A DNA stretch of 64,000 bases from Catellatospora sp. KI3 (GTDB lineage Bacteria > Actinomycetota > Actinomycetes > Mycobacteriales > Micromonosporaceae). Under the pieces are notes generated by a model, which had not been told where the DNA came from, ran no database searches, and was given only the letters and a program-made list of their open reading frames with translations. Made by a program: the position numbers and the translations under genes. Location of the stretch: assembly GCF_029948125.1 (NCBI RefSeq), contig NZ_JASAMB010000006.1:62001-126000 (forward strand), read 5' to 3'. Shown one piece after another: positions 8,867 to 13,461 of this stretch (the first letter of the stretch is position 1; each line of letters begins with the position of its first letter).

Positions 8867-8915
8867 ACGGCCAGCGTCGTGGCGGCGCCGTGCGGGAGCC
8901 AGCGATGATCGTTAA

Positions 8916-8946
8916 CCTGTGGACGACACGCCGGTTCATCCACAGG
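8916..8946. promoter_or_regulatory. Inverted repeat in the DUF4192 / MobA-like divergent promoter region
   Basis: CCTGTGGA (8916-8923) and TCCACAGG (8939-8946) form a perfect 8-bp inverted repeat with a 15-bp spacer. It sits between the two divergent genes, 16 nt before the chosen MobA-like start. It could be an operator or a pair of weak DnaA-box-like sites. No regulator can be named. Confidence 0.35.
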
Positions 8947-8961
8947 CGGAAGGGGGAGCAC

Positions 8962-9564
8962 TTGCTGCCGTACGCGGCGTTGGTGCTGGCCGGAGGCGCG
9001 GCCCGCCGGATGGGCGGGGCGCCCAAACCGCTGCTGCCCGTCGGCGGCGTACCGCTGCTGGCGCGGGTGCTCGCCGCGGTGCGCGGCGCCGACCCGATCG
9101 TGGTCGTCGGCCCGCCCGACCTGGACCCGCTGCTGCCGCCGGGCGTCCTGCGCACCCGCGAGCAGCCGCCCGGCGGCGGACCGGTGGCGGCCGTCGCGGC
9201 CGGGCTGGCGCTGTGCCCGCCCACCGGCCGGGTGCTCGTGGCCGGCGCCGACCTGCCGTTCCTGACCGCCGGCGGGATCGCGGACCTGCTCGCCGTCGAC
9301 GCGCCGGTGGTCATGTACGCCGACGAGCAGGGCCGGGCGCAGCACATGCTCTCGGTGTGGCGGGTGGAGGCGCTGCGCGCGGCAGTGCCGGAGGAGCCCG
9401 CCGGGGCCTCCATGCGCGGCCTGCTGCGCGACCTGGCACCCCACCTGGCCGCCTGGACCGGCACCGGACCGCCGCCGTGGTATGACTGCGACACCGTGCC
9501 CGACCTGCGCGCGGCGAACGACCTGAGCGAGACGGAGGGGCCCGATGGCCGTCGACCTGCCTGA
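8962..9564 (+). CDS. MobA-like molybdenum cofactor nucleotidyltransferase family protein
   Basis: A 200-residue NTP-transferase-fold protein with LVLAGGAARRMGGAPKPLLP at the N-terminus and GADLPFL further on, as in MobA/MocA enzymes that add GMP or CMP to molybdopterin. TTG 8962 is chosen because AGGGGGAG lies just upstream and the family begins right at this strand; the longer GTG at 8890 would add residues unlike the family. The gene overlaps the DUF6457 gene by 20 bp. With moaA-moaD nearby, a molybdenum cofactor role is likely, but members of this fold can transfer nucleotides to other substrates. Confidence 0.8.
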   Translation: MLPYAALVLAGGAARRMGGAPKPLLPVGGVPLLARVLAAVRGADPIVVVGPPDLDPLLPPGVLRTREQPPGGGPVAAVAAGLALCPPTGRVLVAGADLPFLTAGGIADLLAVDAPVVMYADEQGRAQHMLSVWRVEALRAAVPEEPAGASMRGLLRDLAPHLAAWTGTGPPPWYDCDTVPDLRAANDLSETEGPDGRRPA

Positions 9565-9787: not shown

Positions 9788-9906
9788 CTACGCGAATACC
9801 GCTCCGGTCGGTAATGTCTGCGTGACAGGGGACCGGGCTTTCTGACGTATGCCGCGGCAGCGGTGGCTTGCCTGCACGGGGGCCACGCCCCAGGAGGAGG
9901 CGAGCG

Positions 9907-10932
9907 ATGACGGAACTGTCGAAACCCGGCCTGGCCGAGGCCGAGCTGCTGGACGAGCCCACCACGGCCGACCTGCACGAGAAGGTCACCGAGGCGTGGC
10001 GCGAGTTCGCCCGGGCCCTGGCCGCCGCCCTGCCCGAGCTGCCGCCCGGCAGCGAGCTGGAGCTGGCCCTGGACCCGACCGCGTCGGGCACCGGCAACGC
10101 GGTGTACGGCGTGAGCGTGGAGCGCCTGGAGGACGGCGCCCTGCAGGCCCGAGCGGTCAGCAACGCGAACCTGCCCGAGGGCTTCCGGTTGGAGCGCCCC
10201 GCGATCGCGGCCATGGTCGCGCTCGGCTGGTCGCCGCCCGGCGTCATCGCCGGGGCGAAGGAGAACTTCGGCCTGTCGGCGCAGCCCGAGGCGCTCGCCA
10301 CGATCATCACGCGCACCCTGCGCGACGTGTACGGCGCCCCGCACCCGGCCTTCCTCGTATACGAGGCGCACGACGCCCAGGAGGAGCCCGTCACCGTCGC
10401 TCCGCTGGGCACCGCTCGGCACGAGTCCACTCTGGACGCCTTCCTGCCCGCGATCGATTCGCTGGACGCCAGCGGGCTCGACCTCGCCGTCCGGGTGCGC
10501 ATCGTGGTCGCGGCACTGCTGAAGTCCGATCCGGACGAGCTGCAGGTCGACGGCGACGGGGACATCGGCATCCGGGCCGGCTCGGCGATGGTGTTCGTGC
10601 GGGTGCGCGAGAACCCGGCGCTGATCGACGTCTTCTCGCCGGTGCTGACCGAGATCGAGCCGACGGAGAAGCTGTTCGCCAAGCTGTCCGACCTGACCAA
10701 CCGGATGCCGATCGGCCGCCTGTACTGCACCTCCGGCACGGTGTGGGCGTCGATCCCGGTGTTCGGCCGCGACTTCCAGGCCAGCCACCTGGCGCTGGCC
10801 ATCCAGGTCATGACCGGCCTGGCCGACGAGCTGGACGACCGCCTGCACGGCGAGTTCGGCGGCAAGCGCTTCTTCGGCGAGGGCGACAAGCCGGCCCCGA
10901 TCGAGGAACCCCGCTTCGGCCAGTACCTCTGA
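9907..10932 (+). CDS. YbjN / type III chaperone-like domain protein with a C-terminal GQYL proteasome-docking-like motif
   Basis: A 341-residue cytoplasmic protein. The second half (RVRIVVAALLKSDPDELQVD, then IGIRAGSAMVFVRVRENPAL and VFSPVLTEIEPTEKLFAKL) resembles the YbjN/Tir-chaperone-like fold. The protein ends EEPRFGQYL. A C-terminal GQYL is the tail by which actinobacterial Mpa and Bpa dock on the 20S proteasome, and Bpa encoded 2 kb downstream ends GLGQYL. I infer a possible proteasome-linked chaperone or adaptor. The start ATG 9907 has AGGAGG six nt upstream; the ATG at 9868 lacks one. A strong 21-bp inverted repeat follows the gene. Confidence 0.75.
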   Translation: MTELSKPGLAEAELLDEPTTADLHEKVTEAWREFARALAAALPELPPGSELELALDPTASGTGNAVYGVSVERLEDGALQARAVSNANLPEGFRLERPAIAAMVALGWSPPGVIAGAKENFGLSAQPEALATIITRTLRDVYGAPHPAFLVYEAHDAQEEPVTVAPLGTARHESTLDAFLPAIDSLDASGLDLAVRVRIVVAALLKSDPDELQVDGDGDIGIRAGSAMVFVRVRENPALIDVFSPVLTEIEPTEKLFAKLSDLTNRMPIGRLYCTSGTVWASIPVFGRDFQASHLALAIQVMTGLADELDDRLHGEFGGKRFFGEGDKPAPIEEPRFGQYL

Positions 10933-10990: not shown

Positions 10991-11049
10991 GACGTTGGCC
11001 TATTACATCGAAGACGATCTACGAAAAGTCGATGTAATAGGCCAACGTC
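10991..11049. repeat. Perfect 21-bp inverted repeat with 17-nt loop (family D)
   Basis: The left arm begins GACGTTGGCCTATTACATCG at 10991 and the right arm (11029-11049) is its exact reverse complement over 21 bp. The arms are far more AT-rich than the surroundings. The element lies between two convergent genes (stops at 10932 and 11124), so it may act as a bidirectional terminator. The perfect arms suggest a recent origin or selection for structure. Confidence 0.75.
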
Positions 11050-12881: not shown

Positions 12882-12887
12882 TAGGAT
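12882..12887 (+). promoter_or_regulatory. Candidate -10 box of the bpa promoter
   Basis: TAGGAT lies about 29 nt before the chosen GTG start of bpa. It overlaps the alternative ATG at 12886, which argues that translation starts at GTG 12916, where GGAGGAGG is present. Confidence 0.4.
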
Positions 12888-12915
12888 GGGTGGGTTCCTG
12901 ACGGAGGAGGTCGGC

Positions 12916-13461
12916 GTGACCCAGCAGCACCCTGATGAGAAGAGTGTGGTGGTCGTGGGCCCGGACGGGCGCCCGATCGGCACGGTGGAGGTCGGCGGGG
13001 ACGGATCTGCCGCCGGAATCGGCGAGGAAGACCCGGGACGCCTGATCGAGCAGCCCGCGAAGGTCATGCGGATCGGGAGCATGATCAAGCAGTTGCTGGA
13101 GGAGGTGCGCGCCGCGCCGCTGGACGAGGCGGGCCGCCAGCGGCTGGTCGAGATCCACCGCCGGTCGATCATCGAGCTGGAGGACGGGCTGTCGCCCGAG
13201 CTGCGCGACGAGCTGGAGCGGATCTCGGTCGACTTCACCGAGGGCGCGACCCCGTCGGAGTCCGAGCTGCGGATCGCCCAGGCCCAGCTGGTCGGCTGGC
13301 TGGAGGGCCTGTTCCACGGCATCCAGGCCGCGCTGGTGGCGCAGCAGATGGCCGCCCGCATGCAGCTGGAGCAGATGCGCAACATCCCCGCCCTGCCCCC
13401 CGGCGCCACCGGCGCGGACCCGAACAAGCCGGGCCGCGGCGGCCTGGGCCAGTACCTCTGA
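12916..13461 (+). CDS. bpa: Bacterial proteasome activator Bpa (PafE)
   Basis: A 181-residue protein of the actinobacterial Bpa/PafE family. This ring-forming, ATP-independent activator opens the 20S proteasome gate for unfolded substrates. The helical core is highly recognisable: VMRIGSMIKQLLEEVRAAPL, then SELRIAQAQLVGWLEGLFHG and QMAARMQLEQMR. The protein ends GLGQYL, and this tail inserts into proteasome alpha-ring pockets. GTG 12916 has GGAGGAGG upstream; the ATG at 12886 overlaps the likely -10 box. The gene is divergent from the solute-binding gene and ends 5 nt before a family A palindrome. Confidence 0.95.
   Translation: MTQQHPDEKSVVVVGPDGRPIGTVEVGGDGSAAGIGEEDPGRLIEQPAKVMRIGSMIKQLLEEVRAAPLDEAGRQRLVEIHRRSIIELEDGLSPELRDELERISVDFTEGATPSESELRIAQAQLVGWLEGLFHGIQAALVAQQMAARMQLEQMRNIPALPPGATGADPNKPGRGGLGQYL

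What the first reader, a model, noticed from the sequence alone, without database searches (positions are those of the whole stretch)
9907..10932. YbjN/chaperone-like protein with a C-terminal GQYL: candidate new proteasome-docking factor
The protein ends EEPRFGQYL. In actinobacteria a C-terminal GQYL is how Mpa and Bpa engage the 20S proteasome, and bpa is encoded 2 kb away with the ending GLGQYL. A YbjN/Tir-chaperone-like fold with this tail is not a proteasome partner I know. It could deliver or hold substrates for the proteasome.
Basis: partly seen in the sequence, partly recalled or inferred. Interest (0 to 1): 0.75.

Follow-up and report, generated by a model that had tools for sequence, protein, structure and literature searches.

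The report
Chaperone-like protein with proteasome-docking tail
A chaperone-like bacterial protein ends in the same kind of short tail that two known proteins use to plug into the protein-shredding proteasome, and many of its relatives among the actinobacteria keep that tail, so it is a strong but untested candidate for a new proteasome partner.

Summary
The gene at 9907-10932 (+) encodes 341 residues (Pfam TY-Chap3 + TY-Chap1) ending FGQYL; bpa, ending GLGQYL, starts 1.95 kb downstream. In the 8.2-Mb genome GQYL-stop occurs three times: ARC/Mpa, Bpa and this protein.

The tail is conserved, but as GxYL. All 80 named-genome orthologues read end G[QM]YL, with synonymous codon change, behind a linker of varying length; 15 further same-family genomes and five of family f13 have GMYL; two of another order have GGYL. 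Of 96 TY-Chap1 loci read across the phylum, 31 end in Y[LI]; with f13, ten families carry it. Bpa tails vary likewise (GQYL in 30 of 47), and papers say the Q is replaceable.

Co-occurrence is weak evidence: 28 of 31 tailed genomes have PrcAB matches (three incomplete ones have other proteasome-system genes), but so do 37 of 48 tail-less ones (p = 0.23); phylogenetic correction has no power. Eleven tailed genomes lack a recognisable Bpa.

Best reading: a peptide-binding chaperone docked on the 20S alpha-ring by its tail. Binding is untested; its role (client delivery, assembly or gate control) is inferred.

The parts
9907..10932 (+). TY-Chap3 + TY-Chap1 protein, 341 aa, C-terminal FGQYL
9991..10356 (+). 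TY-Chap3 domain (residues 29-150)
   Evidence: PF22552, E=4.4e-25
10483..10878 (+). TY-Chap1 domain (residues 193-324)
   Evidence: PF22551, E=1.3e-41; profile match to PDB 2plg, E=2.1e-4
10879..10917 (+). linker between chaperone domain and tail: its first residues (EGDKP) are conserved in the family, the rest varies in length and sequence; low confidence in the model
   Evidence: column entropies of 41 rows; pLDDT under 50 for residues 315-341 of a weak model
10918..10929 (+). GQYL tail, candidate 20S proteasome-docking motif
12886..13461 (+). bpa, bacterial proteasome activator, ends GLGQYL
   Evidence: PF10759, E=5.1e-72
8890..9564 (+). MobA-like nucleotidyltransferase upstream; one also lies upstream of the orthologue in the f13 genome G012 (synteny)
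   Evidence: PF12804 in both (layout)

Best explanation
The protein is a peptide-binding chaperone-like protein (two YbjN/T3SS-chaperone-type domains) tethered to the 20S proteasome. Its last four residues, on a flexible linker, would insert between two PrcA subunits as the GQYL tails of ARC and Bpa do: the penultimate Tyr in the pocket, the terminal carboxylate on the pocket lysine. Docked there it would hold or hand over unfolded or damaged clients and help open the gate without ATP, in parallel with Bpa. Shown here: the domains, the tail, its selection and its spread. Inferred: docking (about 0.75); given docking, client delivery or activation about 0.5, assembly or gate control about 0.35. 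The confidence below is for docking with some chaperone-type role; the first rival shares the docking step.
For: Tail G[QM]YL in 80 of 80 named-genome orthologues, with synonymous codon change; GMYL in 15 of 15 other same-family and 5 of 5 f13 proteins; GGYL in the 2 f35 orthologues. 31 of 96 TY-Chap1 loci read end in Y[LI]. Only ARC, Bpa and this protein end GQYL in the own genome. Bpa tails span overlapping variants: GQYL 30, GPYL 7, GMYL 4 and six singletons, of 47; ARC is GQYL in 54 of 54 genomes with a readable end. Published: Q of GQYL is freely mutable (passages of PMC6017811 and PMC12288473, both citing Jastrab 2015); Bpa has a like layout, conserved core, 15-20 poorly conserved residues, then GQYL (passages of PMC4254994). 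28 of 31 tailed genomes have two or more PF00227 matches; the other three have PrcB+ARC+Bpa with the contig ending after prcB (G158), ARC (G823) or Bpa (G682).
Against: No binding data. 65 of 96 TY-Chap1 loci read lack the tail; 37 of 48 tail-less genomes have PrcAB matches and Fisher p is 0.23. The tree-based pair test has only 2 usable pairs and no power. Three same-family genomes of genus g4 have PrcAB, ARC and Bpa but no orthologue. Outside the window's family no genomic link to proteasome genes was noticed. Some distant tails (SGYL, TGYL, GGYL, SPYL) were not seen in Bpa. A protein with one or two tails would lack the avidity of a ring. Chaperone activity rests on Pfam and on one paper's prediction.
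Confidence: 0.68

Rival explanations
1. It is a proteasome assembly or gate-control factor, like PAC1-PAC2/Pba1-Pba2: the tail binds the alpha-ring of half-proteasomes, helping assembly or keeping the gate shut until maturation, rather than delivering clients.
For: Eukaryotic and archaeal assembly factors work through HbYX tails (passage of PMC4254994; listing); archaeal PbaB is both chaperone and ATP-independent activator through its C-terminal segments (abstract of PMC3605417). Tailed TY-Chap1 is present in 11 genomes without a recognisable Bpa.
Against: Patchy spread: 336 of 394 class genomes have no TY-Chap1 match (their proteasome genes were mostly not tested), 37 tail-less TY-Chap1 genomes have PrcAB matches, and three same-family genomes with PrcAB, ARC and Bpa lack the orthologue, so it is no general need. 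No Pfam match to a PAC family.
Confidence: 0.2
2. The conserved C-terminus serves something else (a degron, another peptide-binding partner), and likeness to GQYL is convergence.
For: HbYX-type ends occur in 0.72% of bacterial proteins by one survey (passages of PMC11475706). Tailed and tail-less genomes differ little in prcAB (p=0.23).
Against: Variants overlap with those of Bpa; the tail stands behind a stretch of varying length, so it is unlikely to be a fold element; it occurs in ten families and in no clearly proteasome-less genome.
Confidence: 0.2
3. Chance: a few unrelated C-termini happen to read GxYL.
For: The control pattern is nearly as frequent as GQYL-stop in the raw genome (2 against 3).
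Against: 80 of 80 orthologues keep it with synonymous change; no called ORF of the 80 neighbourhoods ends YL or YI except with GQYL or GMYL.
Confidence: 0.02

Closest known systems
Bpa/PafE, bacterial proteasome activator
   Same: C-terminal GxYL behind a poorly conserved stretch, overlapping range of tail variants, neighbouring gene in this window
   Different: No PF10759 match here; Bpa is a ring-former (papers), this protein has YbjN/T3SS-chaperone-type domains and unknown assembly
Mpa/ARC proteasomal ATPase
   Same: GQYL tail
   Different: No AAA+ domain found; ARC's tail was GQYL in every readable case, this family's is GxYL
Archaeal PbaB and eukaryotic PAC1-PAC2/Pba1-Pba2
   Same: Non-ring chaperone-like proteins with HbYX-type tails acting on the 20S alpha-ring (works like)
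   Different: No sequence relation found; membership not claimed
TY-Chap1/TY-Chap3, YbjN and T3SS chaperone superfamily (PF22551, PF22552; PMC9503650)
   Same: Domain membership
   Different: Described there in ADP-ribose conflict systems (10 TY-Chap and 0 proteasome mentions in the main text); the conserved proteasome-type tail is new to me
Cpa, Cdc48-like protein of actinobacteria
   Same: A further published actinobacterial proteasome interactor
   Different: AAA+ ATPase without the GQYL tail (passages)

Membership tests
TY-Chap1 / TY-Chap3 (YbjN-like) domain families | Score above Pfam gathering cut-off | tested here: met
   141.7 and 89.1 bits against cut-offs of 27
TY-Chap1 / TY-Chap3 (YbjN-like) domain families | TY-chaperone fold | tested here: inconclusive
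   Model mean pLDDT 57; first Foldseek hit is the T3SS chaperone InvB, E=0.04, not significant; profile match to 2plg, E=2.1e-4
GQYL/HbYX proteasome interactors | Conserved C-terminal GxYL-type motif at the very end of the protein | tested here: met
   80 of 80 named-genome orthologues G[QM]YL
GQYL/HbYX proteasome interactors | Present only where prcAB is present | tested here: inconclusive
   28 of 31 tailed genomes have 2 or more PF00227 matches; the other 3 carry PrcB+ARC+Bpa, ARC, or Bpa; but 37 of 48 tail-less also have 2 or more
GQYL/HbYX proteasome interactors | Tail-dependent binding to 20S | not testable with these tools
   needs experiment
Bpa family | PF10759 domain | tested here: not met
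   No PF10759 match
Proteasomal AAA ATPases (Mpa/ARC, Cpa) | AAA+ module | tested here: not met
   Only TY-Chap domains found

The most novel reading that the evidence does not exclude
Tailed TY-Chap1 proteins are a third, phylum-wide class of bacterial proteasome-docking factor, an ATP-independent chaperone-adaptor that gained or lost its docking tail repeatedly and stands in for Bpa in lineages without one: 11 of the 25 tailed genomes had no PF10759 match (against 0 of 5 tail-less ones in the same call). I lowered the probability from 0.35 after seeing that most genomes of that call had been chosen for their tails.
Probability: 0.3. Interest if true: 0.88.

Novelty: new variant of a known kind. 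Interest (0 to 1): 0.72.

Why it matters
Mpa/ARC, Bpa and Cpa are the bacterial proteasome interactors named in the passages I read. Bpa was found by a search for conserved C-terminal tails that started from M. tuberculosis genes, so a family absent from that species would have been missed (I did not test its presence there by name). A chaperone-fold docking factor would suggest a route by which unpupylated, unfolded clients reach the proteasome, and would give actinobacteria a counterpart of PbaB/PAC-type factors. It makes a cheap test: one pull-down with and without four residues.

Tried and rejected
Strict GQYL conservation was rejected: among the loci read only Catellatospora and three near genera have Q; the rest have M, G and others. 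Co-occurrence as proof was rejected: Fisher p=0.23 over 79 genomes, 0.24 over those at least 90% complete. With the three incomplete tailed genomes rescued by PrcB/ARC/Bpa it is p=0.003 (0.045 for genomes at least 90% complete), but the rescue was not applied alike to tail-less genomes, and related rows are not independent. Structure model: low confidence, so its fold matches are not used as evidence. Operon logic: no proteasome gene was noticed beside the gene outside the window's family, from crude ORFs of 13 loci judged by eye and 10 proteins scanned, one of them from the window. The TTG start at 9868 was set aside for ATG 9907 with AGGAGG. Family and genus codes from the genome search are unnamed; I do not name them.

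Rows dropped: of 71 class-wide TY-Chap1 matches one weak one (G469:C189) was not read; of 40 phylum-wide rows 9 repeat the class set and 5 weak ones were not read. The tree left out 16 low-scoring class rows and added three rows from A1. The prcAB search covered 79 of 87 TY-Chap1 genomes; the 8 left out had only matches under the family cut-off. Tails of ARC and Bpa were read in 59 chosen genomes (29), not in a random sample. Phyla other than Actinomycetota were not searched, apart from the 14 named control genomes of the TY-Chap1 searches, where it rang in none.

Full report
OBSERVATION. The gene at 9907-10932 (+) starts at ATG behind AGGAGG, encodes 341 residues and ends EEPRFGQYL. Pfam places TY-Chap3 at 29-150 and TY-Chap1 at 193-324; NCBIfam has nothing. 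A protein search finds one copy in the 8.2-Mb genome; a profile search adds one weak partial match (E=4e-5). bpa (PF10759, E=5.1e-72) is 1,954 bp downstream on the same strand and ends GLGQYL. A whole-genome search for GQYL-stop finds three sites: the ARC/Mpa-type ATPase, this gene, Bpa. The control pattern gives two sites, so the count alone proves nothing; that all three real sites are gene ends of this kind is the telling part.

ORTHOLOGUES. In 150 genomes of the order, full-length relatives were found in 16 of the 19 same-family genomes listed, own included (the others 66-70% identical), and in 5 genomes of one other family, f13 (52-56%). All 15 other same-family proteins and all 5 f13 proteins end GMYL; a second, interrupted copy in G145 (L033) does not. 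The f13 proteins carry an extra N-terminal region of about 140 residues with no Pfam match in the two scanned. A scan of named genomes kept 80 of 204 loci; the nearest is Catellatospora tritici at 95%, and from the genera listed I take all 80 to be Micromonosporaceae (family recalled, not looked up). All 80 end G[QM]YL: 9 Q (Catellatospora, Allorhizocola, Rhizocola, Catelliglobosispora), 71 M. At the codon level G is 80/80 with 3 codons, Y 80/80 with 2, L 80/80 with 4. Between the motif GG[KR]RF and the tail lie 13-22 residues: first a conserved stretch, then one with column entropies up to 3 bits and gaps. bpa is downstream on the same strand in 75 of the 80, always ending GQYL; the other five loci end 0.2 to 6 kb after the gene. 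In four loci looked at, the genes between vary: some have a lipoprotein-like gene, an Lrp-type regulator and a substrate-binding protein gene (names judged by eye).

WIDER FAMILY. With the orthologue profile in 394 genomes of the class, two genomes of another order (f35) have full-length relatives ending GGYL; the other relatives found there that are not orthologues mostly lack such a tail. TY-Chap1 (PF22551) occurs in 58 of 394 class genomes and 37 of 396 phylum genomes (the samples overlap). Of 70 class loci read 12 end in Y[LI]: GMYL/GQYL in f1 (3), GGYL in f35 (2), f32 (1) and f25 (3), GLYL in f41 (1), SPYL in f49 (2). Of 26 further phylum loci read 19 do: SGYL/TGYL in f68 (14), PGYL (2) and GAYL (1) in f61, GGYL and AGYI in f67. 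These 31 proteins end 13-44 residues behind the Pfam match. On a tree of 83 TY-Chap1 domains the tail needs 6 changes, at least 2 forced by well-supported branches, so it was gained or lost more than once; few columns, many open forks.

THE TAIL AS A DOCKING MOTIF. ARC ends GQYL in 54 of 54 genomes with a readable end. Bpa, shown to dock in mycobacteria (PMC4254994 passages), varies: GQYL 30, GPYL 7, GMYL 4, GQYI, GAYL, GNYL, GHYL, STYL and PGYI one each, of 47. GMYL is thus a natural Bpa tail in some families; GGYL, SGYL, TGYL and SPYL were not seen in Bpa. Two papers (passages read) state that Q can be replaced (PMC6017811, PMC12288473; the primary paper was not held). In the Bpa paper (passages) a stretch of 15-20 less conserved residues precedes the conserved GQYL, much the layout seen here.

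CO-OCCURRENCE. Of 79 TY-Chap1 genomes tested, 28 of 31 tailed and 37 of 48 tail-less have two or more PF00227 matches: p=0.23. The three tailed exceptions: G158, where the contig ends just after prcB and ARC and Bpa are present; G823, 88% complete, with ARC; G682, 83% complete, with Bpa. Counted as proteasome-bearing, they give 31 of 31 against 37 of 48, p=0.003, but the rescue was one-sided and rows are related; the paired test on the tree has no power. So: consistent, not proof. Against the idea of a core component, three same-family genomes (genus g4) have PrcAB, ARC and Bpa but no orthologue.

BPA-LESS GENOMES. Of 30 genomes searched, 25 of them chosen for a tailed TY-Chap1, 11 have no PF10759 match (two f49, nine f68); all 11 are among the 25 tailed (tails). 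All 14 tailed genomes have Bpa, so 28 of 39 tailed genomes examined have it. A diverged Bpa could have been missed.

MECHANISM. TY-Chap domains were proposed in 2022 as peptide-binding chaperones in ADP-ribose conflict systems (PMC9503650, passages), with no mention of the proteasome. A chaperone-like body on a flexible, docking tail suggests client holding or delivery at the 20S entrance; archaeal PbaB, a chaperone and ATP-independent activator, is the closest working parallel (PMC3605417, abstract). Assembly or gate control is the main rival. My fold model is weak (pLDDT 57), its first match being a T3SS chaperone at E=0.04.

NOVELTY. Searches for GQYL+proteasome (12 papers), TY-Chap (2), YbjN/proteasome/actinobacteria (two of three terms; 15 of 1,081 listed), YbjN+proteasome (0 papers) and HbYX+Pup+actinobacteria (10) showed no title or abstract linking this family to the proteasome, and the YbjN+proteasome pair occurs in no held paper; most subscription papers and all bioRxiv preprints are outside the library. 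A database of HbYX proteins (PMC11475706, passages) lists 982 in Actinobacteria; I could not see whether this family is among them.

Noticed in passing
window 10991-11049: Perfect 21-bp inverted repeat with a 17-base loop between the convergent ends of this gene and the Lrp-type gene; not seen in the 170 bases behind the gene in the six Catellatospora loci printed, though several show other hairpins there. Possibly a bidirectional terminator.
   Followed up: partly
Bpa loci L174-L201 and L309-L327: The Bpa tail is not always GQYL: GPYL, GMYL, GAYL, GNYL, GHYL, GQYI, STYL and PGYI occur, while ARC stays GQYL in every readable case.
   Followed up: yes
L021-L024 (family f13), L117, L118 (family f35): Orthologues there have an extra N-terminal stretch of roughly 140 residues; neither of the two f13 proteins scanned has a Pfam match in it.
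   Followed up: partly
genomes G313, G383 (f49) and nine f68 genomes: No recognisable Bpa by PF10759, yet a tailed TY-Chap1 is present.
   Followed up: partly
L358, L359, L366 (family f68): The tailed TY-Chap1 gene lies near WhiB and penicillin-binding-protein genes (scanned in L358) and an ArsA-type ATPase gene (scanned in L359); the setting looks repeated by eye.
   Followed up: partly
L033 (G145:C12): A second, interrupted TY-Chap1 copy (one internal stop in the match) without the tail, in a genome that also has the tailed gene.
   Followed up: no
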